64,000 nucleotides of DNA, taken from positions 109,592 through 173,591 of the forward strand of contig JAFPWS010000026.1 in NCBI GenBank assembly GCA_017412705.1, in the 5' to 3' direction. Positions 7,012 to 20,257 of the stretch are shown here, one piece after another. The translations under genes and the position numbers were made by a program. The stretch's first letter is position 1. The number at the start of each line of letters is the position of its first letter. The notes under the pieces were generated by a model, which saw only the letters and a list, made by a program, of their open reading frames with translations, was not told the origin of the DNA and did not search any database. This DNA is from Prevotella sp. (GTDB lineage: Bacteria > Bacteroidota > Bacteroidia > Bacteroidales > Bacteroidaceae).

Positions 7012-7050
7012 GTGTATTTGTTGCTTTATTCTTTATGTCAATCTATTGTG

Positions 7051-7058
7051 CAAAGATA
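7051..7058 (-). promoter_or_regulatory. -7 promoter box of the VirE-family gene
   Basis: TATCTTTG on the minus strand, 39 bases before the ATG at 7011. Confidence 0.65.
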
Positions 7059-7259
7059 CGAAAAAATAAGGGAAAATGCAAGGAAACAGTCCATTTTTTT
7101 CAATGAAAGGACACTTTCTGGTGAAAGAAACGTCATCTTCCGCTCGTTCAAATGGTTTCTCCGACTCGTTCAAACGGAACCAGAAAAGGGATGGAGACGT
7201 AACAAATAGCGTCAAACCACTATTCAAACAGGTATTGAGCGCCTGGCTAAGAAACTTTT

Positions 7260-7325
7260 GCCTATAGGCAAAACATCTTGCGCCTATAGTCAAAATACCT
7301 TTCGCCTATATGCGAAATGGCTTGT
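7260..7325. repeat. Three 22-bp iterons upstream of the VirE-family gene
   Basis: Exact 22-base period at 7260-7281, 7282-7303 and 7304-7325. Each unit starts GCCTATA and continues with a variable (g/t)(g/t)c-aaaa block. Each also centres on a dyad: TTTTGCCTATAGGCAAAA (7256-7273) is a perfect 18-bp palindrome and TTTCGCCTATATGCGAAA (7300-7317) has 6-bp arms. Such arrays bind initiators or repressors. Confidence 0.85.
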
Positions 7326-7349
7326 TGAAATTTCTTATAGTAGCACTAC

Positions 7350-7452
7350 AGTAGCACTTCGGTAGCACCATTTTCACCCTTTCGTGCACCCGTCTTTACG
7401 CTGAAAACCAGCATATTGCAATCCTCGGTAGCACCAGTAGCACCATTTTTTG
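7350..7452 (-). repeat. Right arm of ~103-bp inverted repeat
   Basis: Reverse complement of the arm at 4755-4857. It carries the same GGTGCTACCGA motif twice and the GACGGGTGCACGAAA block, and lies about 340 bases upstream of the VirE-family start codon. Confidence 0.85.
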
Positions 7453-7673
7453 TTTGTTGCATATTTTCTCCTTTACCAATGCTACATCTTGTTTTATCCA
7501 CAAGTCTACACATTCTTTTACAATGTTTTTTCCTGAAACAGAAATATCATCCAATTTTATAGGAGCATATAATTTAGAACTCAAATGTAAGTTACTCACA
7601 AAAGATGCCAGGGGATTGTCTTTTACCCCCTGGCATACATCTCCTTAGCTTGTGCCAACGATTATCGTCGCTC

Positions 7674-8708
7674 TCATTCTTTAGTTTTATTCTTATAAGC
7701 TGCAACTCTCACGGCAGCATTGGCCTTGATATTATAGTAATACAGCGGATAATCGTTCTCGTGGAAGCTGGCTGGACCGAAGAGAGGGAACGTCTCTGGG
7801 GCTACGGCCTTGGTCGTGGTGATGATGACACCTCTCTTCAGGTCGATCTTGGCATCAGCAGCGTGTGGATAGTCCTCAGGCAATCCCGTCTCCTCGTTGA
7901 AGATGTAGCCGCCCAGGCTTTCCTCCGCCGATGCGTAAGTCTCGTCACGCTTCCAGTTGATGGGATTGATACTGATGGCACCCGGCATGACAACAATGTT
8001 GTTCTCGTTGCCGGCCGCCTCAGTATTGTACGATATAATCACGCCAGTGTCGTCGGCTCCCTCTGCAAACTTGAGATGCGGGTTGTCTTTGAGATAATCC
8101 TCGGTGATGGAAAAACCAATTACGTAGGCTGCGATCATGCGCTTCAGATACTCAGGGTGCGCCTTCATGTATTCTGCCAGGACAAAGCTCTGCATGATGG
8201 AGCCCTGCGAGTGTCCTGCCAGGATGAAGGGGCGTCCGCCATTGAGGTGCTCAAAATAGTAGTCGAGGGCTGCAAACACATCTGTCTTTGGAACAGAGTT
8301 GAAGGCAGCTTCACGATCTTCCATAGACATTTTGGCCAAAGCGGCCATGTTGCACTGCCTGTAGAAGGGAGTATAGACATTAGCGACATCCTCAAAGGCG
8401 GTTCCCTGTACGAGATAGGTTCGCATAGCCGGCAGGCGCATGGCCGGTTCGTTGATGTCGGCAAATACGGGTGCGTCCTCGGAATCATCGACATACTCCG
8501 TCGGATAGACATAGAAGCAGTCGACATCCTTGGTTGCATCAGGTTGGTGCATCCAGTTGTCCTCGTCGCTGTAGTCTACGGCCTTCACCGTCTCATCTCC
8601 GGGGTTCGCAGGAACCGGGTTGTTGTCCTTGCTGCTGCATGAAGTGAGCACCGTTGTCGTGCCGCAAGTCAGGATGGCGGCAAGCATCCACTTTTTCGTT
8701 TTTCTCAT
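7674..8708 (-). CDS. DUF3089 alpha/beta-hydrolase lipoprotein
   Basis: 344 residues from the ATG at 8708. The N-terminus MRKTKKWMLAAILTCG leads to the lipobox LTSC, so it is a lipoprotein. The typical DUF3089 opening CFYVYPTEYV follows, then the nucleophile elbow LAGHSQGS (GxSxG). The family is annotated as lipase-like; the substrate is unknown. The longer upstream reading is rejected because it has no signal peptide and the promoter TACCTTTG at 8752-8759 lies inside it. Monocistronic; the neighbouring AraC gene runs in the same direction 170 bases upstream. Confidence 0.85.
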   Translation of the reverse strand: MRKTKKWMLAAILTCGTTTVLTSCSSKDNNPVPANPGDETVKAVDYSDEDNWMHQPDATKDVDCFYVYPTEYVDDSEDAPVFADINEPAMRLPAMRTYLVQGTAFEDVANVYTPFYRQCNMAALAKMSMEDREAAFNSVPKTDVFAALDYYFEHLNGGRPFILAGHSQGSIMQSFVLAEYMKAHPEYLKRMIAAYVIGFSITEDYLKDNPHLKFAEGADDTGVIISYNTEAAGNENNIVVMPGAISINPINWKRDETYASAEESLGGYIFNEETGLPEDYPHAADAKIDLKRGVIITTTKAVAPETFPLFGPASFHENDYPLYYYNIKANAAVRVAAYKNKTKE

Positions 8709-10060: not shown

Positions 10061-11047
10061 TTAGAGTCTAATTCCCTTCTGAATCTCAGTTTGTCCCAAT
10101 CCCAATTGTTCCCTGAACCATTTGTCTATTGGCATGCCATTTATGTGCAGGAAAAGAAAACGTTTCTCATCCCTTATCACCTGTGCTGTGACATTATTGG
10201 CAAGTGAATTGCGTCTGTACTCAGTGGAATGCAGCCACCCGCTATAATTGATGCGCTGTCCGTGTAGAAGTTTGTCGGTCTGTTCCATGTTGAAGCCACA
10301 CTCCAAACACTCACGCTCCATATTGAGGAAACGCTTGAAGCTCGGGAACCATCTATAAGCCTTGTCTAAGAGTCGCTTCAAGTTGCTCACCTCCTTCTGG
10401 TGTTGCTCATTAGTACGATTAAGTTCTCTTGTGTGGTTGTCCTTCAACTTCTGCATATCGGTGTGCAGCCTTTCAATCTGCTCATTCAGATCTTCAACCT
10501 CCCTCTGCAGTTGGGCGTTCTCTTTCTCCAGTCGGTTCACCTTGTTGCCGCCAAGAAGAGAATTCACTCCGTTAAGTACGCTGGTGGCAGTCTTCGTGGC
10601 GGAGTTCTTGCATAGGCAAGCGACCAAGTTCGAGCGGGCACGGCTCATGACCTCATCAGCGCACAGACGAGGAGCAGGGGCTTTCGTCCTATATCTCTTC
10701 TTGGCGGTCTGTTCCTGGTACCCTCCACGATGTTATCAACATCGCGGACTCCTCCCTTCTGTTTCTTACGCTCAGTCTGCACGATGGGGACGATGGTGGC
10801 ATGGATATGTGTTGTTTCCTCGTCCATATGCAGCACAGCCGAAACTACATTATCAGTTCCATAGGTCTTACGGAGCCAGTCAATGTTATCCTTGCACCAT
10901 TCATCCAGTCTGCCCCTCTGCTCTATTTGCTCCATATCGGCATGGGTGCCAGTGAGGACAATGCGGATGGTCTGTACCTGATTCTTGCCATTCTTACGCC
11001 TGAGTCCTGCCGTATCAAGGCAGTGCTGGTTTGATATTTCGTTTCGC
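10061..11047 (-). pseudogene. Decayed MobV/Pre-type relaxase
   Basis: The remnant reads in two frames. Upstream (to about 10720) is the middle of a Mob/Pre relaxase: RRKNGKNQVQTIRIVLTGTH, GRLDEWCKDN, and the metal-binding motif VLHMDEETTHIHATIVPIV. A frameshift near 10720 moves the homology to a second frame (AKKRYRTKAPAPRLCADEVM), continuing into a coiled coil and the usual C-terminal region down to 10061. The N-terminal ~50 residues with the first relaxase motif are missing; an in-frame stop lies upstream near 11120. It is what remains of a mobilizable element; repeat R1 begins about 110 bases further on. Confidence 0.82.
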
Positions 11048-11158
11048 TTGTCTCTTGTTCCTATCTGTGTTCGGCCACTGCCGACGGTCTTGGCCGGGTG
11101 TCCAGAGGGGTGCCGCTCGACCTACGGTCGCTTGCAAGGCAAGAACTGTGCAAAGGGA

Positions 11159-11300
11159 TTCCAAAGTGTTAAAAGTTTAGGTCGGCTATGACAATCGGCA
11201 CCTTGCATATGCCAAAAGCCACCACTTTCTTTGTTTCTGAGAGCGGTTGACAGGGTTACGATTTGGCAACCTAACTCTTGCCGCAATCTTCCCAGATTTG
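11159..11300 (+). repeat. 142-bp direct repeat, copy R1
   Basis: Matches 19829-19970 in the same orientation with about 4 differences in 142 bases. Each copy is followed about 100 bases later by the 84-bp promoter-bearing repeat, so both look like the same terminus of one element family. R1 follows the relaxase remnant; R2 follows the integrase. Confidence 0.9.
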
Positions 11301-11401
11301 CGTAGAGCCTACCTACCGCCTTACTTCGTTTTTCCTCGAAATGCCTTTGTCTATGCACTTTGTTGCGTTAATTCTCCAAAATTACTTCTCAAAATCAACC
11401 T

Positions 11402-11500
11402 TTTTTCGTAACTTTGGCTTCACCGAACTTACTCGGCACTCGGAAATGAAAAGAAAAGCAAACTTTCCTTTTGCATTTCTCTCGTTTTTTCGTAACTTTG
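11402..11500 (+). repeat. 84-bp promoter-bearing repeat, left copy plus partial next unit
   Basis: One complete unit begins with the T-run and CGTAACTTTGG and ends ...GCATTTCTCTCG; the next unit starts again with CGTAACTTTGG. GTAACTTTGG sites lie at 11408-11417 and 11492-11501, 84 bases apart. The same unit occurs twice at 20069-20236. Confidence 0.88.
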
Positions 11501-11700
11501 GAAGAAATCTCAAACTTTCTTTGTTTATCGGAGGTTTGAGAGATAACGCGATTTTCGAGGTTACGAACTGGAAACCTTCTGATTTCCGCATTCTGCCGCG
11601 ATATGCGTATTGTTAGACCACTCGACGCTGAGCCACCAGCCTGTTTCAATGGCTCTTTGTCGGGGGCAAAGGTAATGCATTTATTTGAAACTGCCAAATA

Positions 11701-12318
11701 TTAAGCAGGATTTTTACGGGGCTGCAAGTCCATGAGGTCGAAAAACATCAATCGGGTGTTCTGGGGTACAACGGCTTTGTCCTTTCGGGTACTCCTTGAT
11801 TCTTCCTCTTCGGATGCAAACAAGTAAGTAAATCCGTTCTTCTCATAATATGATAATGCGTCTGGTGCATTACGAGCGTCAACTATCAAGAAGCGATAAC
11901 CTGTCTTGCCGCCAGTACCCAACCATCGCTTGATAAAGTTCATAAGGGCAGTGCCAATGCCTTGATGTGCCATTGCCTTATTGACTGCCAATCGTCCTAT
12001 CAAGATGCCAGGATAGCGTTTAAGCCGTTTCTCACTGAGGTCATTTTCTTCACGGAATGCCTCTTGCTTTCGGTTTGAGAGATCTGTCATGCGCAGACTG
12101 TCGTTGGAAACAGAGAAAGCACAGGCAATCTGCTGGAGATTACTCTTGGGACGAAACGCATAAGAACGGCTTACCATCCGTTGGGTATATCCAATAGCAT
12201 CCTTCTGGAAGTACTCGTCAAGGTCATCTATACCACAAGAAAAATGCTCGCACTCTGCGAGCACCTCTTCTGTCAGTTCTGTGAACTTAAACTTGCTCAA
12301 TAATTCGTCATCTGTCAT
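11701..12318 (-). CDS. GNAT acetyltransferase, probable toxin
   Basis: 205 residues. The acetyl-CoA loop AHQGIGTALMNF and the preceding strand IGRLAVNKA are the GNAT core. The C-terminal SYYEKNGF is typical of the superfamily. It is preceded by a 55-codon gene whose stop overlaps this start by 4 bases, the layout of TacAT-type systems in which GNAT toxins acetylate aminoacyl-tRNA. At about 205 residues it is somewhat longer than classical TacT (about 165), with an insert around residues 75-100. The toxin role is inferred from pairing; it could be an ordinary acetyltransferase. Confidence 0.78.
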   Translation of the reverse strand: MTDDELLSKFKFTELTEEVLAECEHFSCGIDDLDEYFQKDAIGYTQRMVSRSYAFRPKSNLQQIACAFSVSNDSLRMTDLSNRKQEAFREENDLSEKRLKRYPGILIGRLAVNKAMAHQGIGTALMNFIKRWLGTGGKTGYRFLIVDARNAPDALSYYEKNGFTYLFASEEEESRSTRKDKAVVPQNTRLMFFDLMDLQPRKNPA

Positions 12319-12482
12319 AGCGGCATTCCTGATTCTTTCATCATTTTGATATATGCACGCTCTTCTTCCTCATTATATATGACGATGTGGCGTGGGTTGC
12401 GCTCACGCTCTTCTGCACGCTCTATGAATGCCCTTGCGGCTTCACCGTGCAATGTTGGGATAATCTTTACTGGTGTTGCCAT
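12315..12482 (-). CDS. Small antitoxin-like partner of the GNAT protein
   Basis: 55 residues from the ATG at 12482, beginning MATPVKIIPTLHGEAARAF, then a charged helical stretch and YIKMMKESGMPL. A start 10 codons upstream is possible but is less typical. I see no clear ribbon-helix-helix, so the antitoxin call rests on its size, its 4-base overlap with the GNAT gene and its upstream position. Promoter TAATTTTG lies at 12510-12517 on the minus strand, divergent from the RNA promoter at 12633-12640. Confidence 0.65.
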   Translation of the reverse strand: MATPVKIIPTLHGEAARAFIERAEERERNPRHIVIYNEEEERAYIKMMKESGMPL

Positions 12483-12509
12483 ATTATTACTTCCTTTTGA
12501 TTCTCGCTG

Positions 12510-12517
12510 CAAAATTA
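12510..12517 (-). promoter_or_regulatory. -7 promoter box of the GNAT toxin-antitoxin operon
   Basis: TAATTTTG on the minus strand, 27 bases before the antitoxin ATG. Confidence 0.6.
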
Positions 12518-12632
12518 GTCAAAATTCTCCAAAGTTGCAAGGAATTGGCAAGATTTCAGCCAAAAAGAAAGAAAATCGAGCCGATTTTTGCAGAAATTTG
12601 TTCAAATTGCCATCAGATTCGAGAAAAATCAC

Positions 12633-12640
12633 TATCTTTG
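12633..12640 (+). promoter_or_regulatory. -7 promoter box ahead of the structured RNA and WG operon
   Basis: TATCTTTG; transcription would begin near 12646-12648, about 280 bases before the first codon of the operon. Confidence 0.65.
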
Positions 12641-12645
12641 CAGCG

Positions 12646-12925
12646 GTTTCGGGGAGAAATCCGGAGCCGGTGATGCATTAGCTTATTATTTCGCACTTTA
12701 CCAAAGACGCCTAGGAAACCTCTTCTGGAATAGTTCGATTTAAGAAGCAGAGGGAAGGCCAAGTTGCGGCACTCCCAATCTGACGAAGAAGCTATGCCTC
12801 CACGCTATATGGCGTGGTTGCATTCTTATATGTCAGATAGGGGTTCCAATTTCCTAGGCGCGCCCCTCAGGTAAAGTGCATAAGGATGGCCACGCCATTC
12901 TTTATGCCTATGCTTCTGCATTTAA
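12646..12925 (+). ncRNA. Structured RNA or leader of unknown class
   Basis: About 280 bases with no credible ORF and several nested exact pairings. GCACTTTACC 12693-12702 pairs with 12870-12879 (10/10). CGCCTAGGAAA 12708-12718 pairs with 12850-12860 (11/11). ATCTGAC 12778-12784 pairs with 12832-12838. CCACGC 12800-12805 pairs with 12812-12817, extended by ATGC/GCAT. CCTCT 12719-12723 pairs with AGAGG 12749-12753. A closing ATGCA/TGCAT helix (12673/12916) and a hairpin at 12879-12905 complete it. No T-run terminator follows, so it may be the 5' leader of the operon starting at 12930. It does not fit tmRNA, RNase P, SRP or a B12 riboswitch; 6S was considered unlikely because it branches. Confidence 0.65.
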
Positions 12926-12929
12926 CTAG

Positions 12930-14456
12930 ATGGATATGGAAATAAAAGAAGTACCCAAAGAGAATGCCTTTATGGTGGCTATGTATTCGTTTATTCCTTT
13001 AGATGAGATTAAACGGAAATACAAGCATGCTTTTGTGGATATAGAGCCGACAAAACCATCTAATCTAATCAAGTACACCAAAGCGAGATATTCCAAAATC
13101 GAGTTGATAGAATCCGATAAAGTTTCTAAATCTGACAAAGATTGCAAATGGAAGAAGGTTGAAATGGAAAATGTGGATATACCCGAATTCCATTTTAACT
13201 ACAGATACAAACAGAAGGACTATGAGCGATTTGTCTCTCTCAGGTTTTGGATTGTCTGGTTCTCCTCCTCTTTGAATCGGAAAGGAAGATATTATCTTGT
13301 TGCAAGTACATGCATTGACAAGGCATTTACACATCAGTTTCCCGAGCGCCCTCTCAACAATGATGATATATGTACCTTACAAGACATTATACATTTGAAA
13401 CAATCTTTTTATGGTGGTGACGAGAAGAGCGAATTATACTATCTGAATGAGAAAGATGAACATGTTTCCATTTTAAATAAATTGGATGAGGTAATAAAGG
13501 AGATTACAGGGAAAGAATCAGAAGGGAAATATGGTCGCCATTACGCACTGGATGTATTTGGTGTAGATATCCAATCAAAAGACTCTATTGATAATTTTGA
13601 AACTTTAAAAAAAGCTTTCAGCAAAGCCTATTATAGCAAAGATACAAAGTCATATGACGAAGTTGTTGTTGACTATGACAAACTGGTTTATGGCCTTATC
13701 TATGGTAATGAGAACAGCGATGTTCTACCATCGGAAACAACGAAAGAAGCATTGAAAGGAGGTTTCTCAAATAACAAATCTGAGAAATTGTTTGCTGGTC
13801 ATAAAACTATGGTATATTTGCATACGCACCATCCATACCAATGGGAGCCTGAAAAAGAAAATAAGACAAAATCCATTAACAGTGACATTGATAGTATAAG
13901 TGGTAATTTCCTGCTTTATGACATCTGCTTAGTGATGGAGGCTAAGTTCAAGCTGAAGACTATTCAAAAAAATTTAAGCAAAGAACATCCTTCAGATATA
14001 AAAGGAGCCTTATCAGCAATGTCTGGTTACCTAAATGTAAATCCTTATCACTTAGGAGAATATGGAAAGAGAACCAAGTACATTTACCGAACTATGGGTG
14101 TAAAAGACTTGTGGGAGATCGTTATGACACAGGGGAATTTGAGTTCAAGTGCTAAAGAAATAGAGTTGAATGAACATCTAAGTCATAGAGTTTATGCATT
14201 AACAGCTATTACAGTGGTTATTGGTACCTTAAGCCTTATAGTTAGCATCTTATGTTGCAACAATTCAAATAATTCATCAGATATGTGTAACTGTTATTTC
14301 GGAGGCGCAGAGTTTCAAGGAGGTTGCTGTGCCGTTATAGGCTGTCTGCTATTTATAGTGTTGGCAGCAAGTGTTATCACGATGGCCGTCTATCAGGTCA
14401 AGTCGTTCTATAAGCTCAACAAAATTGAGGAAGAAATTAAGAAAATGAATAAATGA
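12930..14456 (+). CDS. Unknown protein with two C-terminal membrane helices
   Basis: 508 residues, no family recognised. Residues 1-420 look soluble and charged. There is a His-rich segment LHTHHPYQWEPEK near residue 293. Two hydrophobic helices lie at about 423-445 and 470-495, separated by a short Cys-rich loop (CCNNS, MCNCYFGG, GGCCA). A short charged tail follows. A tail-anchored hairpin would place the large domain in the cytoplasm. First gene of the five-gene cluster, 18 bases ahead of the next. Codon use is far more AT-rich than the flanking host genes. A second ATG two codons in is also possible as start. Confidence 0.75.
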   Translation: MDMEIKEVPKENAFMVAMYSFIPLDEIKRKYKHAFVDIEPTKPSNLIKYTKARYSKIELIESDKVSKSDKDCKWKKVEMENVDIPEFHFNYRYKQKDYERFVSLRFWIVWFSSSLNRKGRYYLVASTCIDKAFTHQFPERPLNNDDICTLQDIIHLKQSFYGGDEKSELYYLNEKDEHVSILNKLDEVIKEITGKESEGKYGRHYALDVFGVDIQSKDSIDNFETLKKAFSKAYYSKDTKSYDEVVVDYDKLVYGLIYGNENSDVLPSETTKEALKGGFSNNKSEKLFAGHKTMVYLHTHHPYQWEPEKENKTKSINSDIDSISGNFLLYDICLVMEAKFKLKTIQKNLSKEHPSDIKGALSAMSGYLNVNPYHLGEYGKRTKYIYRTMGVKDLWEIVMTQGNLSSSAKEIELNEHLSHRVYALTAITVVIGTLSLIVSILCCNNSNNSSDMCNCYFGGAEFQGGCCAVIGCLLFIVLAASVITMAVYQVKSFYKLNKIEEEIKKMNK

Positions 14457-14474
14457 TTTTATAGGATTGTAAAT

Positions 14475-15884
14475 ATGAAACAAACTACTTTTATTAGTGC
14501 TATAGTGACCTTATTATTATTGTCAAATTCTCTATTCTGTGTTGACGCATATAGTCAAGTCCGATGGGAAGGACATTATAAAGGAAAGCATTGGAGGATT
14601 ATGGGCATTCCTGCAGGTACTTTAGAAATTGATGGAAAAGTCATATTAACTCCTCGAGATTATCAAACAATATACCAATATGAGATTGGTAATGAAGTAT
14701 ATTTTTATGCAACAGGAAATAACATTCATGATCCTGATCATTATGAGATCTTTAATATTGATGGTGAAAGAATAATTCCATATAAGTTCTGTTGGAGAGA
14801 TATTCTTCAAGTTGGCGATGCTTACTTTTTCGTAATTAGAAGATATTCATTAGATAGCCCCGGAGATTTATTTACATCAAAGGGAAAGCTTCTTGTCTCA
14901 AATTATCAAGGAGAAGTGTTGTCTAAGTATATCAAACGTATAACAGATAGTAAATATGGGGAGCTGTTCCTTGTTAAAGCCAAAGATGAATATAATAAAA
15001 TCAAGCAAGGTCTTTTTACAACGTCAGGTGACTGTATAATCCCTGTAAAATATAAAAGTATTAATTGGACTACTGATGACGATGATAATATCGCCAAATT
15101 CGAAGTGACTAATGACAATGATTACATTGGCATCATGGATAGGGACAAAAATTGGATTGTTCCACTGAGCAAGCAATTTACGAAAGTTACACCATCTGAA
15201 ATATCAGGAAAGAAATACTTCCTTTGTATGAAAAAAGGCTATTGGGGATTGTATGATACACAATTCAATGAAGTGATAGCTCCTGACTTCGAGGGGTTGG
15301 AGGTTCTTGATGAAATTAATTTCATTAAGTTTAGGCTTAACGGTTTTTGGGGGGTAATGACTCTCCAAACTAGCACAAACACAACAAAAACAATCATTCC
15401 GACAACCCGCGGCTATACAAGTATTGGCAGATATATTAAGAGCCAAAAACGCTTTACATACACAATGAATGGTTATAAAGGAGAATGCAACCACTTAGGG
15501 CAACAAGTTTCCAAAATCAAAGTTGCAACGCCTAAACCTTCAACGACTATAGCCTCATCATACGGTTCGTCATCTTCTTCATCAAGCAAATCCTCTTCCA
15601 GTTCATCCTCTTCTTCTACAGCATCATCAAGTAGCAGTTCAAGTAGTAACAATTCCGGGAATAAAACTACAACCGTCGTAGTAGAGCATCATCGCGATCC
15701 TATACCTGTTCAAGAGTGGGTGCAGTGTACTGCTTGCTGGGGATCCGGAACATGTCCAAATTGTGCAGGGTCTGGAACTAAATACATAGGAGATAATTTG
15801 AGAAGGTGCTGGCGTTGCGGCGGACGAGGTAAGTGCTCTAGTTGTTCTGGCCAAGGTGGCCGATATTACACAGTATATAAGTAA
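14475..15884 (+). CDS. Secreted WG-repeat protein with Ser-rich linker and DnaJ-like zinc module
   Basis: 469 residues. A signal peptide (about 1-28, ending DAYSQ) precedes WG/KWG-type beta repeats (YWGLYDTQFNEVIAPDF, FWGVMT, IMDRDKNWIVPL) over about residues 35-340. A low-complexity serine linker (about 358-395) leads to the conserved TTTVVVEHHRDPIPVQEW. The end carries four CxxC pairs (CTAC, CPNC, CWRC, CSSC) with G-x-G spacing as in the DnaJ zinc finger, and terminates YYTVYK. The last ~80 residues recur in the gene at 16531. Probably periplasmic or surface exposed; function unknown. Confidence 0.82.
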   Translation: MKQTTFISAIVTLLLLSNSLFCVDAYSQVRWEGHYKGKHWRIMGIPAGTLEIDGKVILTPRDYQTIYQYEIGNEVYFYATGNNIHDPDHYEIFNIDGERIIPYKFCWRDILQVGDAYFFVIRRYSLDSPGDLFTSKGKLLVSNYQGEVLSKYIKRITDSKYGELFLVKAKDEYNKIKQGLFTTSGDCIIPVKYKSINWTTDDDDNIAKFEVTNDNDYIGIMDRDKNWIVPLSKQFTKVTPSEISGKKYFLCMKKGYWGLYDTQFNEVIAPDFEGLEVLDEINFIKFRLNGFWGVMTLQTSTNTTKTIIPTTRGYTSIGRYIKSQKRFTYTMNGYKGECNHLGQQVSKIKVATPKPSTTIASSYGSSSSSSSKSSSSSSSSSTASSSSSSSSNNSGNKTTTVVVEHHRDPIPVQEWVQCTACWGSGTCPNCAGSGTKYIGDNLRRCWRCGGRGKCSSCSGQGGRYYTVYK

Positions 15885-15913
15885 AGGTCATGTCATATAT
15901 TTGATTTCAAAAT

Positions 15914-16459
15914 ATGGAGTATTTGATTATTATCAGAATTGATGTTCTTGGATGGAGTTCTGTAAAGATTAAGAACCAGCTAGTAAGAGCGATTGAATCT
16001 TCAAGCAATATTCATCAATTTCATTTCGAATTTGTACGACATGGAAGATTTCTTCAGCCGAAATTTTACCGCAGGACAAAGAAAGAAGTGATAGAGGTGT
16101 TTATCAGCCGACAGGTAAAGCAATGCTATAAGGAGTTTGCAAAGATACATGGGGTGGAGAAGAAGGATGCTCCCAAGACTTCTAAATACAAGGAGAAAAA
16201 GGGTAGTTATATACAAGAACTCCTTCTAAAGCTGCCTGATATCATTACAGAGGTTTTAGCCGTTGAATTTCTGACATATTTGGCTAATAAGTTGAAAAAA
16301 GAATTTGAAAAACTTATAAAAGAAAAGTCTCATAAAAAGAAAGATAACAACAATGATGGTGGAAAGCAAACTCCAAAACAAAATGAGACGAAAACTACAA
16401 TCCAAGTAAAAATCGGCAAATTGATTGTTGAGGATATCACAATAATTGTAGATATTTAA
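15914..16459 (+). CDS. Unknown basic protein of the WG cluster
   Basis: 181 residues, no signal peptide. An N-terminal beta/alpha segment (MEYLIIIRIDVLGWSSVKIK) is followed by a basic region, a hydrophobic helix (about 115-135, LLLKLPDIITEVLAVEFLTY), a Lys/Asn-rich linker and a C-terminal alternating Ile/Val strand ending VEDITIIVDI. The alternating C-terminal strand resembles the end of the 142-residue protein at 17614, suggesting the two contact the same partner. It lies 29 bases after the first WG-repeat gene. Confidence 0.65.
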   Translation: MEYLIIIRIDVLGWSSVKIKNQLVRAIESSSNIHQFHFEFVRHGRFLQPKFYRRTKKEVIEVFISRQVKQCYKEFAKIHGVEKKDAPKTSKYKEKKGSYIQELLLKLPDIITEVLAVEFLTYLANKLKKEFEKLIKEKSHKKKDNNNDGGKQTPKQNETKTTIQVKIGKLIVEDITIIVDI

Positions 16460-16530
16460 TTAATTACGTGACAAGAGATAGAATAAATATGTTAATGTTG
16501 TAAACGACAAATCTTTAAAGGTATAAGATT

Positions 16531-17604
16531 ATGAAACAGAAACTATTCTTGATGGTGATGATATTGGGAATGTGCAGCATCAACGCGAGTGCGCAAACAA
16601 AGAAATGGACGACAGACAAGAAAAAAAACTCTGTTGTAGAGGTAACAAAATCGCGAGAAGTGGGTCGTGATGGGTATATTTGGTATAAATTAAAGAAAGG
16701 GAAATTATATGGTGCTCAAAATATTGAGGGAAAAATAGTAATACCAGTAAGGTATTCTATGGTTGATTATAGATGTGATGATAGATATGGGTCACACTGG
16801 TTTTGTGTAGGTGATGGAGACTTTGAAGGAGCTTATACAATAGAAGGAGACTATGTAGTTACTACTGATAAGCACTATGTTGATGTCATTCTTTTTGGAA
16901 ATAATGGTCGCTTTGCTTGGGTGGTTAAAACGAATCAAGGAGCTTGGGGATTATTAGATGTAAAAGGAAATATTGTAGTTTCACCTCAGTTTTCTGGAGG
17001 ATACAGTGGTAATGTTCCTACGATAGGATGTGCTTTGGGTGAGAACTGCATTCTCGTAACTCATAAGAACATGGAAGGCGCATGTGATTTAAATGGAAAA
17101 CTGATTATTGAGCCCAAATATTCATCTTGTTTCTTTTCTGGTAATTGTTTTAAAGTCAAAACATCAGAATCTAGCAGTTTCCAAGACATAAATATTGATT
17201 TACCGTCATCGATACGATATGATTACGTCCCATTTGGTGGAATGTACTTTGATTTCAAAGAACGCCCATATATTAGAGTTTCTTCTTCAGGTTCTTCATC
17301 TAATTCATCATCTTCGCCGGGTTCATCTTCTAGTAGTAATTTAAGCGGAAATAGTAACTCTGGAAACAATACAACAACTGTAGTGGTAGAACATCATCGT
17401 GACCCTGTACCTGTACAGGAATGGCAGTCGTGTACAAATTGCTGGGGCGAAGGAAAAGTTATGTGTCTCGGGGCGTGTGGAGGAACTGGAACATACTACG
17501 TCGGGGACAGACTACGTATATGCAGCAGTTGCAATGGTTCAGGAAAAAAGATATGCCCTTACTGCTCAGGACAAGGTGGAAAATATTATACTGTCTATAA
17601 ATAA
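16531..17604 (+). CDS. Second secreted WG-repeat/zinc-module protein
   Basis: 357 residues, paralogue of the protein at 14475. The signal peptide ends NASAQ (about residue 22). WG-type repeats are visible (AWGLLDVKGNIVVSPQF, GACDLNGKLIIEPKYS). A Ser-rich linker (about 252-283) precedes the shared TTTVVVEHHRDPVPVQEW and a zinc module with CTNC, CLGAC, CSSC and CPYC, ending YYTVYK. One Cys pair is CxxxC instead of CxxC. Repeat regions differ strongly between the paralogues while the C-terminal module is well conserved, so recognition varies and the tail is fixed. The 71-base gap upstream is the largest in the cluster. Confidence 0.82.
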   Translation: MKQKLFLMVMILGMCSINASAQTKKWTTDKKKNSVVEVTKSREVGRDGYIWYKLKKGKLYGAQNIEGKIVIPVRYSMVDYRCDDRYGSHWFCVGDGDFEGAYTIEGDYVVTTDKHYVDVILFGNNGRFAWVVKTNQGAWGLLDVKGNIVVSPQFSGGYSGNVPTIGCALGENCILVTHKNMEGACDLNGKLIIEPKYSSCFFSGNCFKVKTSESSSFQDINIDLPSSIRYDYVPFGGMYFDFKERPYIRVSSSGSSSNSSSSPGSSSSSNLSGNSNSGNNTTTVVVEHHRDPVPVQEWQSCTNCWGEGKVMCLGACGGTGTYYVGDRLRICSSCNGSGKKICPYCSGQGGKYYTVYK

Positions 17605-17613
17605 TAGTGAGTT

Positions 17614-18042
17614 ATGCCAAAAATGAAAATTAAGAAAGGAGAAAAGGAGGTAAAGCCTGTTTCTAATGAAAGTTGGGATATAGAGCCAATAGAAAATGTT
17701 GATGGACTTCAACAAGTTATAGAGCAATACTCATCAGAAATACAAAAAGGCATGAGAAAGAAAGGGGCGTCCTCGGATGATAATAAACCCAAAAGAAGTT
17801 ACAAGGCATCAGTTCAGCTATCAAATGAAACTGAGATAAGAGACTTCTTTGAGGAACTCATAAGTTTTCTTGGAAAGATTCCGCCCTTAATTCAAGTCAG
17901 AAAAAATGAGACAACGATTAATGTCGACAATGGAAATAATATGTATTCTGATGATCCGAACAATCCACCAGAATCTGGCGGGCCTAATTATCAGATAAAC
18001 AATGTGGTAAATATTGATATTAACATCAATGTCAAAAAATAA
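17614..18042 (+). CDS. Unknown small acidic/basic protein of the WG cluster
   Basis: 142 residues, no signal or membrane segment. It starts with a Lys-rich stretch, has a helical core (about 75-100, FFEELISFLGKIPPLIQ), then a Pro/Asn/Gly-rich linker and ends in alternating Asn-Ile/Val residues (INNVVNIDININVKK). Nine bases separate it from the preceding gene, so it is cotranscribed. Similar tail logic to the 181-residue protein, but no overall homology is evident by eye. Last gene of the cluster, followed by the 16-bp dyad at 18083-18122. Confidence 0.65.
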   Translation: MPKMKIKKGEKEVKPVSNESWDIEPIENVDGLQQVIEQYSSEIQKGMRKKGASSDDNKPKRSYKASVQLSNETEIRDFFEELISFLGKIPPLIQVRKNETTINVDNGNNMYSDDPNNPPESGGPNYQINNVVNIDININVKK

Positions 18043-18082
18043 TCCCTTGAAACAAGTTGAAGATACCGACTTCGGAGGATAA

Positions 18083-18122
18083 TCTTTTGAGTTACTCGAA
18101 ACGACTCGAGTAACTCAAAAGA
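18083..18122 (+). terminator. Perfect 16-bp dyad after the WG operon
   Basis: Arms TCTTTTGAGTTACTCG (18083-18098) and its exact complement (18107-18122) with an 8-base loop. No T-run follows, so it may be a factor-dependent terminator, an mRNA stabiliser or a protein-binding site. Confidence 0.6.
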
Positions 18123-18259
18123 CATCTTGCTATGTTCATTTGAACACAGTTTGTCATAGAGCCAAATCTCTTTCACGTAGTGGTTATGACAGTAGAATAC
18201 TGAAAAACGTTTAATCAACAAATCAGTCAATCAGTAGTTCTATCAATTATGCAATCATT

Positions 18260-18325
18260 AGATGGTACGTTGGATTGTTAGAACGTTAGTACGTTCCAAC
18301 GTTAGAGCGTTCCAACATACCATCT
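18260..18325. repeat. Nested dyad with internal 16-bp direct repeats
   Basis: Outer arms 18260-18274 and 18311-18325 match 14 of 15. Inside, AACGTTAGTACGTTCC (18282-18297) and AACGTTAGAGCGTTCC (18298-18313) are adjacent 16-mers, each itself a dyad. It lies just beyond the 3' end of the RhuM-like gene and could serve recombination, replication or termination. Confidence 0.8.
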
Positions 18326-18346
18326 TTTGCAAGAACCGTCGTTTGA

Positions 18347-18718
18347 CTAACTTATTGTACCATTGATTGCTGTCAGTATCACCTCAAAGGGCTTGTGGTT
18401 ACGCTCTATACGCTCCATCAGCTCCCTGCGGACTGCCCTTGCCTGATAGGAGTTAAGACGGAAGGCAAGCAGTATAACAACCTCCATGTTATATACGGTC
18501 ACATAAAGGTTGGCTCTCTTCTTGATTGTCCGCTCTGCTTCGTAGGGTTTCACAAGTTCCTCTTTGTAGAGGGCTTTGATGGCGTTCCTCAACTTGGGAA
18601 TGAACACTCCGAACAAGTCCACCAGATCGGACTCGCTCATCCAAATCTCTCCACTCGGTATAGTTAGTTCTGTGTACTCGCTATACTCACTCCACTTGAT
18701 GATGTTTCTCTGTTCCAT
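18347..18718 (-). CDS. Small RhuM-like protein beside the integrase
   Basis: 123 residues. The segment VYNMEVVILLAFRLNSYQARAV resembles the conserved core of RhuM/virulence-associated proteins (YNLDVIIAVGYRVNS type). An upstream helical part (MSESDLVDLFGVFIPKLRNA) may be a DNA-binding helix-turn-helix. It is much shorter than full RhuM (about 340 residues). It lies 4 bases downstream of the integrase gene on the same strand, so it is coexpressed and may act in excision or control; that role is inferred. Confidence 0.65.
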   Translation of the reverse strand: MEQRNIIKWSEYSEYTELTIPSGEIWMSESDLVDLFGVFIPKLRNAIKALYKEELVKPYEAERTIKKRANLYVTVYNMEVVILLAFRLNSYQARAVRRELMERIERNHKPFEVILTAINGTIS

Positions 18719-18722
18719 AATC

Positions 18723-19748
18723 TTACGCCATTTTGATGTTACTGAATGATGCGCTTAACTTGCTACCCAGCAGAGTCAAGTCCTCGTTCAACTTCTGCGA
18801 TGTGATGCGGGCATAAATCTGAGTTGTGACGATATTCGTATGTCCCAATACACGGCTCACACTCTCAATAGGCATGCCCTTCGACAAAGCGAGCGTGGCC
18901 CAGGAATGGCGTCCACAGTGCAGGCTTATCTGCTTCTCTATCCCACAGGCAGAGATTACCTTCTTCATTTTTTTGCAGATTGACCAATAGTTGAGTTTCC
19001 CGAACACTAACTTTTCTTCTTGCAGGTGTTTGTATCGCTCTATTATCTGCAAGGGGACATCCATCAACTTCACCTGATAGGGAACATTCGTCTTATGGCG
19101 GTGAGACACTATCCACTTGTCACCGTTGATGTCCACGATGTCATCGATGGTCAGGTTCTTCACGTCCACAAATGCCAATGCCGTCCAGCAGATAAAGACA
19201 AAAATGTCGCGTACGAAGGCAAGGTCGGCATCCTTAAACTCATGGGTCATCACCTGCTTCAGTTCTTCCTCCGTCAGGAACTCACGTTCCTTGCAATTCG
19301 GGCTGATATGGAACTGAGCAAAGGGATTTCGGGGTATCTTGCTGTTGTAATGCGCTCTCATCACGACACCCTTCAGCCACATACACGTCTGCCAGATAGT
19401 GCCGCTTGCCAGTCCTCGCTCTGTGCTGAGATAGGCAGCGAACTCCTCAATGAACTGAGGTGTCAACTCCAGCATGGACATGTCAGAACGTCGGTAATGC
19501 AGTTGTATGAACTCAGCCACATTCTTTCTGGAACGCTGCATAGCCCACAGAGTGCTGATGACCCTGTCCTTGCCTACACGCTTCTTGAAACTGGCTATAT
19601 CCTTGTCGAAGGCATTCAGCAGAGTCTCGTATTCGCTGCCTAAACCCTGATAGGCATTACGCACCATCTCGGCAGTTACGAAACCTTCCTTGTCTGACAG
19701 GTGCTGATAGTGTTTGATGAGTTGAGCCTTGATGTTATCTTTCTTCAA
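18723..19748 (-). CDS. IntDOT-like tyrosine recombinase
   Basis: 341 residues: N-terminal SAM-like core-binding domain (about 75-160) and C-terminal catalytic domain. Visible catalytic residues are HCGRHSW (His, Arg, His/Trp), LGHTN and the Tyr in TTQIYARI. The box that usually holds Arg I reads FICWTALAFVDV without Arg, as in CTnDOT IntDOT, which is active without it. The gene starts about 80 bases from repeat R2 and reads into the element. Promoter TAATTTTG lies at 19766-19773 on the minus strand. It should catalyse integration at GTANNTTTGC-type sites such as 20244-20253. Confidence 0.88.
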   Translation of the reverse strand: MKKDNIKAQLIKHYQHLSDKEGFVTAEMVRNAYQGLGSEYETLLNAFDKDIASFKKRVGKDRVISTLWAMQRSRKNVAEFIQLHYRRSDMSMLELTPQFIEEFAAYLSTERGLASGTIWQTCMWLKGVVMRAHYNSKIPRNPFAQFHISPNCKEREFLTEEELKQVMTHEFKDADLAFVRDIFVFICWTALAFVDVKNLTIDDIVDINGDKWIVSHRHKTNVPYQVKLMDVPLQIIERYKHLQEEKLVFGKLNYWSICKKMKKVISACGIEKQISLHCGRHSWATLALSKGMPIESVSRVLGHTNIVTTQIYARITSQKLNEDLTLLGSKLSASFSNIKMA

Positions 19749-19765
19749 TTTTTAAATTCGGGCTG

Positions 19766-19773
19766 CAAAATTA
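19766..19773 (-). promoter_or_regulatory. -7 promoter box of the integrase gene
   Basis: TAATTTTG on the minus strand, 17 bases before the integrase ATG. Confidence 0.6.
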
Positions 19774-19828
19774 CGATGTTTCGAGCGTTCTTCCACTACG
19801 CAAATCACGGCAGATTTAGGAAAGTCAG

Positions 19829-19970
19829 TTCCAAAGTGTTAAAAGTTTAGGTCGGCTATGACAATCGGCACCTTGCATATGCCAAAAGCCACCACTTTCT
19901 TTGTCTCTGAGAGCGGTTGACAGGGTTACGATTTGGCAACCTAACTCTTGCCGCAATCCTCCCCAATTTG
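19829..19970 (+). repeat. 142-bp direct repeat, copy R2
   Basis: Second copy of the repeat at 11159-11300, about 138 of 142 identical. It sits between the integrase promoter and the tandem 84-bp units. Confidence 0.9.
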
Positions 19971-20068
19971 CTTTCAACCCCAAATTGAACTTCCTCGTTC
20001 TTCCCCTCTTTGCCTTTATTTCAGGCCGAAATGCGTTAATCTTCCCAAATCGCTTTCTTTTTACAAGC

Positions 20069-20252
20069 TTTTTTCGTAACTTTGGCTTCACCGAACTTAC
20101 TCGGCACTCGGAAATGAAAAGAAAAGCAAACTTTCCTTTTGCATTTCTCTCGTTTTTTCGTAACTTTGGCTTCACCGAACTTACTCGGCACTCGGAAATG
20201 AAAAGAAAAGCAAACTTTCCTTTTGCATTTCTCTCGTTTTTTCGTAACTTTG
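20069..20252 (+). repeat. Tandem 84-bp promoter-bearing repeats at the element end
   Basis: Two complete units (20069-20152, 20153-20236) that appear identical, then a third beginning. GTAACTTTG falls at 20076, 20160 and 20244, exactly 84 apart. The third copy reads GTAACTTTGC and is the -7 region of the next gene. Each unit also contains an imperfect dyad (GAAATGAAAAG.../...TTTTGCATTTC). Confidence 0.9.
20245..20252 (+). promoter_or_regulatory. -7 promoter box of the agmatine deiminase gene and element end
   Basis: TAACTTTG followed by CACCC and GTG. The rlmN start at 53484 has the same arrangement (TACCTTTG, CAGCC, GTG). Confidence 0.7.
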
Positions 20253-20257
20253 CACCC

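What the first reader, a model, noticed from the sequence alone, without database searches (positions are those of the whole stretch)
12646..18042. Undescribed cargo system: structured RNA plus a five-gene WG-repeat/zinc-module operon
Seen: a ~280-nt region with several exact long-range pairings, then five same-strand genes with gaps of 18, 29, 71 and 9 bases, all more AT-rich than the host. The products are a 508-residue protein with a C-terminal two-helix hairpin and Cys-rich loop, two exported WG-repeat proteins sharing a Ser-rich linker and four-CxxC tail, and two small proteins with alternating Ile/Val C-termini. Known: WG repeats are beta-rich repeat units, CxxCxGxG is the DnaJ zinc-finger pattern. 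Inferred: a self-contained envelope system, possibly defence, competition or surface sensing, carried by an integrative element.
Basis: partly seen in the sequence, partly recalled or inferred. Interest (0 to 1): 0.85.

Follow-up and report, generated by a model that had tools for sequence, protein, structure and literature searches.

The report
Shared RNA leader before defence-like operon
The folded RNA in front of this unusual gene cluster belongs to a large, apparently undescribed family of mRNA leaders that these bacteria also place in front of DNA-methylation and cell-surface genes, while a second such leader family often precedes anti-phage defence genes, so these RNAs look like shared switches for defence and accessory genes.

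Summary
In detail: five ORFs with gaps of 18, 29, 71 and 9 bases behind a ~280-nt RNA (z -6.0). The RNA is not private to the operon. A covariance model of its core matches 134 of 398 sampled genomes of the genus; the first gene's family (P1) is in 4 of 398. Across 99 chosen copies, 33 of 42 pairs show two-sided changes (707 cells against 183 in shuffles), with a covarying pseudoknot and two strands that can pair alternatively. A -7 promoter box precedes 92 of 99 copies; a gene starts within 160 nt in 86 of 95, mostly exported proteins (subfamily Ia, with this window) or R-M methyltransferases (Ib). Two other P1 loci carry a second leader family (type II), found in 62 of 151 family genomes, with mutually exclusive outer-helix and terminator-like structures, before Ssp, AbiE, TerY/kinase, Zorya-like and R-M genes among others. 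No Rfam match above gathering lay on the leaders scanned. P1 plus an exported repeat protein with a CxxC tail recurs at 6 of 6 accepted P1 loci; the small genes do not. Best reading: a mobile, possibly defence-related operon under a cis-acting structured leader, probably an attenuator. Trigger and P1's function are unknown.

The parts
12633..12640 (+). Promoter -7 box TATCTTTG of the leader RNA (TAnnTTTG consensus recalled from knowledge of Bacteroidota promoters)
   Evidence: Sequence. A TAnnTTTG box lies 55-93 nt before the RNA core in 52 of 53 (Ia) and 40 of 46 (Ib) copies, against 2.7 and 2.4 expected in mononucleotide shuffles. Transcription start inferred, not measured.
12646..12929 (+). 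Structured 5' leader RNA, type I subfamily Ia
   Evidence: z -6.04; covariation of the core across 99 copies; no Rfam match above gathering.
12691..12882 (+). Core matched by covariance model R1 (205.7 bits; the window is one of its three founding sequences)
   Evidence: Helices read from the sequence: 12693-12702/12870-12879, 12708-12718/12850-12860, 12726-12730/12844-12848, 12778-12784/12832-12838, 12800-12805/12812-12817.
12839..12867 (+). Pseudoknot AGGGG (12839-12843) with CCCCT (12863-12867)
   Evidence: 95.1% of 468 cells paired; 30 cells with two-sided change against 7.2 in shuffles, up to 12 in slid controls.
12809..12829 (+). Alternative-pairing strand A (in and beside the apical hairpin)
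   Evidence: Complementary to strand B; in both subfamilies none of 2000 permutations of partners reached the own-pair mean duplex energy.
12880..12898 (+). Alternative-pairing strand B, followed by a T-rich tract (12899-12906)
   Evidence: T per 9 nt after B averages 5.6 (Ia) and 5.4 (Ib) against 3.2 and 2.9 in the next 18 nt. The A:B form of the window RNA is 24 kcal/mol weaker than the folded core when pseudoknots are ignored.
12930..14456 (+). P1: 508-aa protein, large N-terminal part plus C-terminal hydrophobic two-helix hairpin, function unknown
   Evidence: no accepted Pfam, NCBIfam or PADLOC family and no PDB sequence relative. Matches in 4 of 301 family genomes, of which 3 accepted incl. 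own, and 4 of 398 genus genomes incl. own.
14475..15884 (+). Exported WG-repeat protein with Ser-rich linker and CxxC tail
   Evidence: export judged by eye from the N-terminus.
15914..16459 (+). Small protein, 181 aa; weak counterpart in L017 (19% identity, E 8.6e-4)
16531..17604 (+). Second exported WG-repeat protein with Ser-rich linker and CxxC tail
   Evidence: 42% identical over 166 residues to a protein of the P1 locus L018.
17614..18042 (+). Small protein, 142 aa, no family
18723..19748 (-). Tyrosine recombinase of the carrying element (Phage_integrase, SAM_5), with a 123-aa companion at 18347-18718
   Evidence: an integrase and a 30%-identical companion also precede P1 in L005.
11159..20169 (.). 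Unit flanked by direct repeats: 11159-11301 / 19829-19971 (97%) and 11396-11501 / 20064-20169 (99%), spacing about 8.67 kb
   Evidence: a third copy of the 106-nt repeat at 20148-20253, 95%.

Best explanation
The operon is a mobile cargo module whose expression is set by a cis-acting structured 5' leader. SHOWN by sequence: the RNA is a conserved, covarying fold right behind a promoter box and right ahead of a gene, in front of many unrelated genes. SHOWN: type I holds two complementary, covarying strands (A beside the apical hairpin; B after the outer helix, followed by a T-rich tract), so alternative pairings are conserved; type II has an outer helix that shares its 3' strand with a terminator-like hairpin plus T tract. 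INFERRED: the leader chooses between read-through and early termination (transcription attenuation) or, in subfamily Ib, also start-codon access through a hairpin just before the ATG. INFERRED from the genes behind the leaders (R-M methyltransferases, Ssp, AbiE, TerY/kinase, Zorya-like, surface proteins): P1 with its exported CxxC-tail partner is a conflict or defence module acting at the envelope. The signal is unknown.
For: RNA: 96.1% of 4001 cells paired, 33 of 42 pairs with two-sided change, 707 cells against 182.6 +/- 12.0 shuffled, slid controls 50-82 cells; pseudoknot; G.U 109 against A.C 35 among non-Watson-Crick cells. Position: -7 box 52/53 and 40/46; ORF of 100 aa or more starting within 160 nt downstream 44/51 and 42/44, against 2/41 and 2/30 on the mirrored side. 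Alternative pairing: own-pair mean -24.1 against -23.6 permuted (Ia) and -21.5 against -19.4 (Ib), 0 of 2000 permutations each; T tracts. Type II, 37 copies: 21 of 49 pairs with two-sided change, 188 cells against 52.7 +/- 5.9; terminator-like helix 97.3% paired; outer helix own-pair -12.8 against -5.0 permuted, and 6 or more T in the next 9 nt in 34 of 37. Cargo: Pfam over 96 first genes, 27 EcoRI_methylase, 5 N6_Mtase, 3 N6_N4_Mtase, 5 LRR_5, 4 CsgG; 37 of 51 Ia genes score as exported against 49 of 159 neighbouring ORFs. PADLOC behind type II: 154 models matched over 89 proteins against 6 over 78 control proteins; of ten hand-picked proteins nine match named defence models.
Against: No transcript, start-site or termination data. 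In a pseudoknot-free model of the window RNA the A:B form is 24 kcal/mol weaker than the folded core (-78.7 against -103.1), and B can form a short local hairpin, so A:B may be transient or no terminator in type I. Per sequence the A:B advantage is modest: own partner stronger than the median partner in 21 and weaker in 15 of 53 Ia, 27 and 10 of 46 Ib. Subfamily Ia T tracts are imperfect. Helix 2 of type I shows no G.U excess (3 G.U, 8 A.C). In type II the terminator helix has few two-sided changes (7 cells; 100 of 500 shuffles reach the number of such pairs), and the GTTGCTCGTT:AACGAGCAAC pairing shows none beyond chance (419 of 2000). Many genes behind both leaders are ordinary exported proteins. 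P1 has no recognisable domain and the operon no PADLOC match.
Confidence: 0.6

Rival explanations
1. The RNA acts in trans: a small RNA or RNA partner released from the mRNA (as with abiF RNA or other defence-associated RNAs), and the gene behind it only shares its promoter.
For: Large pseudoknotted RNA; in L018 a known abiF RNA with an Abi_2 gene lies divergently beside the P1 leader, so RNA-based defence is near; up to five copies per genome.
Against: 86 of 95 copies have an ORF starting within 160 nt in the same direction against 4 of 71 on the other side; unrelated genes follow; the T tract lies before the gene and the Ib hairpin a few bases before the ATG.
Confidence: 0.17
2. A dedicated RNA-protein machine: the RNA and P1 work together, in the manner of OLE RNA and its membrane protein partners.
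For: RNA and P1 adjacent at 3 P1 loci with type I RNA.
Against: RNA family in 134 of 398 genomes, P1 in 4 of 398; P1 of L018 and L006 has another leader, and in L005 neither leader was found.
Confidence: 0.04
3. A DNA-level element (recombination site, cruciform or transposable end) whose palindromic folds are selected as DNA, as in integron attC sites.
For: Palindromic; reverse-strand matches to the model; helix 2 lacks a G.U excess; part of the cargo resembles that of mobile islands.
Against: G.U exceeds A.C 109 to 35 overall and orientation and distance between promoter box and gene are fixed. A shared sequence at the far end of the cargo was not looked for.
Confidence: 0.08
4. On the role of the operon (compatible with a leader): P1 and its partner form a surface-sensing or glycan-related envelope system rather than defence, and the leader is a general accessory-gene regulator.
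For: Subfamily Ia genes are mostly exported by my rule; a GH13 enzyme is next to P1 in L018 (Pfam) and, by sequence resemblance, in L005 and L006.
Against: Leader families are rich in R-M and defence genes; P1 is rare and patchy.
Confidence: 0.35

Closest known systems
Attenuator-type leaders and riboswitches in general
   Same: 5' position, covarying fold, in type II a strand shared between an outer helix and a terminator-like hairpin with T tract.
   Different: No known signal; the same RNA family stands before unrelated R-M and surface genes (type I) or defence and surface genes (type II); no Rfam match above gathering.
abiF RNA (Rfam RF03085) with Abi_2 genes
   Same: Structured RNA linked to a defence gene; one lies divergently beside the P1 leader in L018.
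   Different: 37-nt model at another place in the locus; it did not match the leaders scanned.
OLE RNA with OapA-type membrane proteins (papers seen as search listing only)
   Same: Large folded RNA next to the gene of a protein with membrane helices.
   Different: The RNA-P1 linkage is exceptional (3 loci); the RNA is otherwise found with unrelated genes.
Candidate structured RNAs of human microbiomes (Fremin and Bhatt 2021, PMC8040213; passages seen)
   Same: A catalogue of 3161 candidates, many in Bacteroidetes and some directly upstream of genes; these leaders could be among them.
   Different: Its main text does not contain the words methyltransferase, restriction or lipoprotein; its supplements could not be read here.
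DnaJ central zinc domain (PF00684)
   Same: Paired CxxC with CxGxG-like spacing in the tails of the exported proteins.
   Different: 17.2 bits (window) and 18.9 bits (L006), below the 32.7-bit cut-off.

Membership tests
cis-regulatory structured leader (attenuator / riboswitch kind) | conserved secondary structure supported by covariation | tested here: met
   (A8 was aligned to the model's structure and leans to it; slid and shuffled controls given there).
cis-regulatory structured leader (attenuator / riboswitch kind) | located between promoter and start codon of a gene | tested here: met
   type I, by sequence only; start site not mapped. Type II downstream genes listed without a control.
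cis-regulatory structured leader (attenuator / riboswitch kind) | mutually exclusive structures, one a terminator or start-codon block | tested here: inconclusive
   Type II: met in sequence. Type I: covarying alternative strands and T tract, but the alternative is energetically weak.
cis-regulatory structured leader (attenuator / riboswitch kind) | a signal changes expression | not testable with these tools
   Needs experiment.
any Rfam 15 family | match at or above gathering score over the leader | tested here: not met
   Window, L017 and L018, 12 type II loci. Matches at or above gathering lay elsewhere in the loci: abiF RNA (L018, L145) and FopS (L017). Other copies were not scanned.
OLE-like RNA-membrane protein complex | RNA and membrane protein co-occur | tested here: not met
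   134 against 4 of 398 genomes.
integron attC / DNA cruciform element | structure selected as DNA, no RNA-strand bias | tested here: inconclusive
   Overall G.U 109 against A.C 35 (13 of the 35 at one pair), but helix 2 has 3 against 8.
WG-repeat proteins (PF14903) | WG_beta_rep at or above cut-off | tested here: met
   42 bits and 25.6 bits, cut-off 25.6.
DnaJ zinc domain (PF00684) | score above cut-off | tested here: not met
   17.2 bits against 32.7.
JAMM/MPN peptidase (considered for P1; motif recalled) | HxH followed by SxxD motif conserved | tested here: not met
   In six relatives only T299, H300 and P302 of that stretch are invariant; the first His of HxH is replaced in three.
known anti-phage defence system (PADLOC) | P1 operon proteins match defence models | tested here: not met
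   0 of 5 proteins at E up to 1.

The most novel reading that the evidence does not exclude
These bacteria use shared RNA sensors as the common front end of their accessory arsenal: two different ornate leader-RNA families gate R-M, Ssp, AbiE, TerY/kinase, Zorya-like and surface operons by attenuation in response to a physiological signal of attack (for example disturbed transcription or translation), leaders and modules are exchanged between lineages, and the P1 + CxxC-tail operon is a new defence system found through its leader.
Probability: 0.27. Interest if true: 0.95.

Novelty: new variant of a known kind. Interest (0 to 1): 0.82.

Why it matters
How bacteria keep costly defence and restriction genes in check until needed, and how newly acquired modules obtain regulated expression, are open questions. 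A leader RNA that recurs before unrelated R-M, defence and surface operons is a concrete candidate regulator with base-pair-level predictions, and the leader is itself a search tool: genes of unknown function behind it become candidate conflict modules. No Rfam match above gathering lay on the leader copies that were scanned.

Tried and rejected
(1) RNA as a private part of the operon: rejected by 134 against 4 of 398 genomes. (2) OLE-like complex: disfavoured on the same grounds. (3) JAMM peptidase reading of P1: HxH not conserved. (4) P1 relatives in viral contigs, plasmids and phages: none; type I DNA pattern in viral contigs: none; type II and type I leaders in plasmids, type II in phages: none; one viral contig holds the type II pattern. 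Type I was not searched in the phage collection. (5) P1 matches dropped as unrelated: G088 (871-aa ORF, E 4.6e-4) and G494 (141-aa membrane protein, E 8.9e-4). G184 (E 5.0e-4) was accepted because of its alignment and neighbours. (6) A 14-codon upstream ORF ending before P1: my notebook entry is wrong; the ATG at 12886 runs out of frame past the P1 start. In L009 and L033 the corresponding ATG is in frame with the gene. (7) Fold of P1: job failed; no structural evidence, only a PDB sequence search with no match. (8) Resemblance of the 181-aa protein to effector-associated 'constant component' proteins: recalled, not tested. (9) My notebook's 'clear score gap' between Ia and Ib is partly my selection: one search lists matches between 98 and 131 bits (for example 127, 125, 122, 121, 106, 104) that I did not fetch. 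(10) Papers: searches. Passages seen in PMC8040213 and PMC2864571; all others only as listings. None of what I saw described these leaders.

Caveats on counts: R1 was built from three Ia sequences that also count among the 99; genome searches scored only part of the first-look candidates with strict filters, so copy numbers are lower bounds. The 99 R1 copies and 40 type II loci were picked from the listed matches, not at random, and relatedness was not corrected for. The eight genomes were picked by me. Export calls come from a rule of mine that misses evident lipoproteins (L062, L075) and calls the L017 P1 exported; control ORFs are mechanical. The PADLOC comparison counts models, not proteins with hits, and many models overlap. 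Of the 40 type II loci, L156 and L161 have no listed downstream gene; of 41 extracted sequences four (L184, L186, L190, L193) were left out of A13 (37 rows).
Full report
OBSERVATION. The WG repeats are accepted Pfam matches; the DnaJ-like zinc pattern is sub-threshold. P1 and the two small proteins match no accepted family, and P1 has no relative by sequence in the PDB.

THE OPERON ELSEWHERE. P1 matches were found in 4 of 301 genomes sampled from the family: own, G041 (L002/L005), G184 (L004/L006; E 5.0e-4, accepted on alignment and neighbours) and G088 (rejected); in 2 of 393 of the order, own and one that I reject; and in 4 of 398 of the genus: own, G789, G756 (L017) and G899 (L018). At these six loci P1 is followed, directly or after one gene, by a protein with a signal-like N-terminus, repeats (WG, Sel1, or BspA-type LRR with WG), a Ser-rich linker and a tail of CxxC pairs; in L009 and L017 the tails are out of frame in the assembly. 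The small genes are not conserved: L009 has a 110-aa ORF with a hydrophobic stretch instead, L017 a 183-aa protein with a weak match (E 8.6e-4), and I noticed none in L005, L006 and L018. A GH13 enzyme lies beside P1 in L018 (Pfam), and ORFs of L005 and L006 resemble it by eye. L017 and L018 have an Abi_2 gene divergently upstream (E 3.1e-53 and 1.5e-57; AbiD by PADLOC), with an abiF RNA in L018; the window and L009 have a GNAT gene there.

THE RNA IS A FAMILY OF LEADERS. Window, L009 and L017 share the RNA with compensatory changes (8 of 85 predicted pairs in three sequences). A model of the core, R1 (189 positions), matched 134 of 398 genomes of the genus at E 0.001 or better, 30 of 151 in a family sample, 10 of 30 genera, and 2 of 198 in an order sample including the own genome. 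In eight genomes that I picked for a fuller search 5 have it, one with five matches. I aligned 99 copies and split them by score into 53 at 130 bits or more (Ia) and 46 at 98 bits or less (Ib); one search also lists intermediate scores that I did not fetch, so the split is partly one of selection. On this alignment 33 of 42 pairs change on both sides in at least one sequence, 707 cells against 182.6 +/- 12.0 in shuffles and 50-82 when partners are slid. The alignment was fitted to the model's structure and relatedness is not corrected, but the size of the effect and the variety of pair types make chance implausible. A pseudoknot not in the model covaries too. Non-Watson-Crick cells are G.U 109 times and A.C 35 times, which favours RNA over DNA, though helix 2 alone (3 against 8) does not.

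POSITION AND CARGO. A TAnnTTTG box lies before 52 of 53 Ia and 40 of 46 Ib copies, mostly 55-63 nt before the core. An ORF of 100 aa or more starts within 160 nt in 44 of 51 Ia and 42 of 44 Ib; the mirrored control is 2 of 41 and 2 of 30. First-gene products (96 scanned): 27 EcoRI_methylase, 5 N6_Mtase, 3 N6_N4_Mtase, 1 HSDR_N_2, 5 LRR_5, 4 CsgG, 4 BACON and others. By inspection the methyltransferases are in Ib. Of Ia genes 37 of 51 score as exported by my rule, against 49 of 159 neighbouring ORFs; Ib 3 of 43 against 13 of 77. The P1 of the window and of L009 does not score as exported; that of L017 does.

ALTERNATIVE PAIRING. In type I the 3' strand of the apical hairpin with the bases after it (A) and the strand after the outer helix (B) are complementary over about 16-18 nt. 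Mean duplex energies of own pairs were not reached by any of 2000 permuted pairings in Ia (-24.1 against -23.6) or Ib (-21.5 against -19.4), though sequence by sequence the own partner beats the median partner in only 21 of 53 and 27 of 46, and is weaker in 15 and 10. B is followed by a T-rich tract. In Ib a hairpin of the kind GATTGATAGT...ACTATCAATC ends a few bases before the start codon (z below -2 against mononucleotide shuffles in 24 of 40; Ia 3 of 48). Against a simple terminator model, the A:B form of the window RNA is 24 kcal/mol weaker than the folded core when pseudoknots are ignored. I regard conserved alternative complementarity as shown and termination as inferred.

TYPE II LEADERS. 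L018 and L006 have a different RNA before P1, not matched by R1 at a meaningful score. A BLAST query with the L018 copy matched 62 of 151 family genomes, 20 of 30 genera; the own genome has none. Thirty-seven aligned copies (A13) give 49 pairs, 21 with two-sided change, 188 cells against 52.7 +/- 5.9. The outer helix (columns 112-125 with 338-352; own-pair energy -12.8 against -5.0 permuted) and a terminator-like hairpin (347-351 with 373-377; 97.3% paired, 7 two-sided cells against 1.1) use the same strand, and 34 of 37 copies have six or more T in the nine bases after it. This is the classical layout of an attenuator, read from sequence only. Of ten proteins that I picked behind type II copies, nine match defence models: TerY, STK_OB, ZorA (E 6e-11), ZorB (1e-10), AbiEi, AbiEii, SspB, SspD and a type III restriction enzyme. 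Pfam over 89 such proteins gives 5 Pkinase, 5 ResIII and 2 Eco57I, but also 3 LRR_5 and 2 CsgG. PADLOC models matched at E 1e-10: 154 over the 89 proteins, 6 over 78 control proteins from the window and other loci.

WHERE THIS LEAVES THE OPERON. P1 modules carry type I leaders in three loci (window, L009, L017) and type II in two (L018, L006); in L005 neither was found. Leaders and modules thus seem exchangeable. The window's copy sits in an 8.67-kb unit between 97-99% direct repeats with a tyrosine recombinase, near a truncated Mob_Pre relaxase. Given the company of the leaders, a defence or conflict role for P1 and its exported partner is my leading guess, not far ahead of a surface or glycan role.

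NOVELTY. No match at or above gathering in Rfam 15 lay on the leaders of the window, L017, L018 and 12 type II loci, and the paper searches listed under Tried and rejected showed no description of them. I call it a new variant of a known kind: structured leaders with exclusive pairings are known; families of them shared by unrelated R-M, defence and surface operons were not described in what I saw. The check before this submission changed facts (helix 2 count, score gap, GH13 basis, L017 export call) but none that moves the odds.

Noticed in passing
L018:1390-1720, L006:5176-5502, L154-L193: Second structured leader family (type II) with a terminator-like end, in 62 of 151 family genomes, before Ssp, AbiE, TerY/kinase, Zorya-like, R-M and other genes.
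   Followed up: partly
subfamily Ib loci such as L080-L086, L090, L091, L050, a few bases before the start codon: Hairpin GATTGATAGT...ACTATCAATC before methyltransferase genes; could be an operator or a translational block.
   Followed up: partly
L009:10700-10780 and 12780-12900; L017 reverse complement 10620-11120 and 12400-12760: The CxxC tails of both exported repeat proteins appear out of frame with their N-terminal parts in each of these two genomes (4 of 4 copies looked at), but in frame in the window and L018. Assembly error and real variation cannot be told apart here.
   Followed up: no
window 11159-11501 and 19829-20169: Long direct repeats, 97-99% identical, about 8.67 kb apart, bracketing the GNAT pair, RNA, operon and integrase.
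   Followed up: partly
window 11701-12512 (-): GNAT acetyltransferase with a 65-aa partner, divergent from the leader; toxin-antitoxin-like by layout. A GNAT gene (29% identical) is at the same place in L009.
   Followed up: partly
L018:1169-1205 (-), L145:1278-1315 (-): abiF RNA (RF03085) above gathering score in loci with a type II leader.
   Followed up: no
L018:3188-4258, L005:5185-6231, L006 about 6966-8082: GH13-type enzyme beside P1 at three of six P1 loci (Pfam-tested in L018 only).
   Followed up: partly
window 10648-10935 (-): Truncated Mob_Pre relaxase (profile positions 99-150 of 196), followed by a coiled-coil ORF.
   Followed up: no
L071:776-1705 (+): Gene behind an Ia leader resembling, by eye only, a PAPS-reductase/DndC-type protein; the leader subfamilies may not divide as cleanly by cargo as stated.
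   Followed up: no
L017:19492-19557 (+): BTncRNA_FopS (RF04319) small RNA.
   Followed up: no
L194:10114-10136 (-): The only viral contig with the type II pattern; ORFs nearby on the other strand resemble ATPases and a helicase by eye.
   Followed up: no
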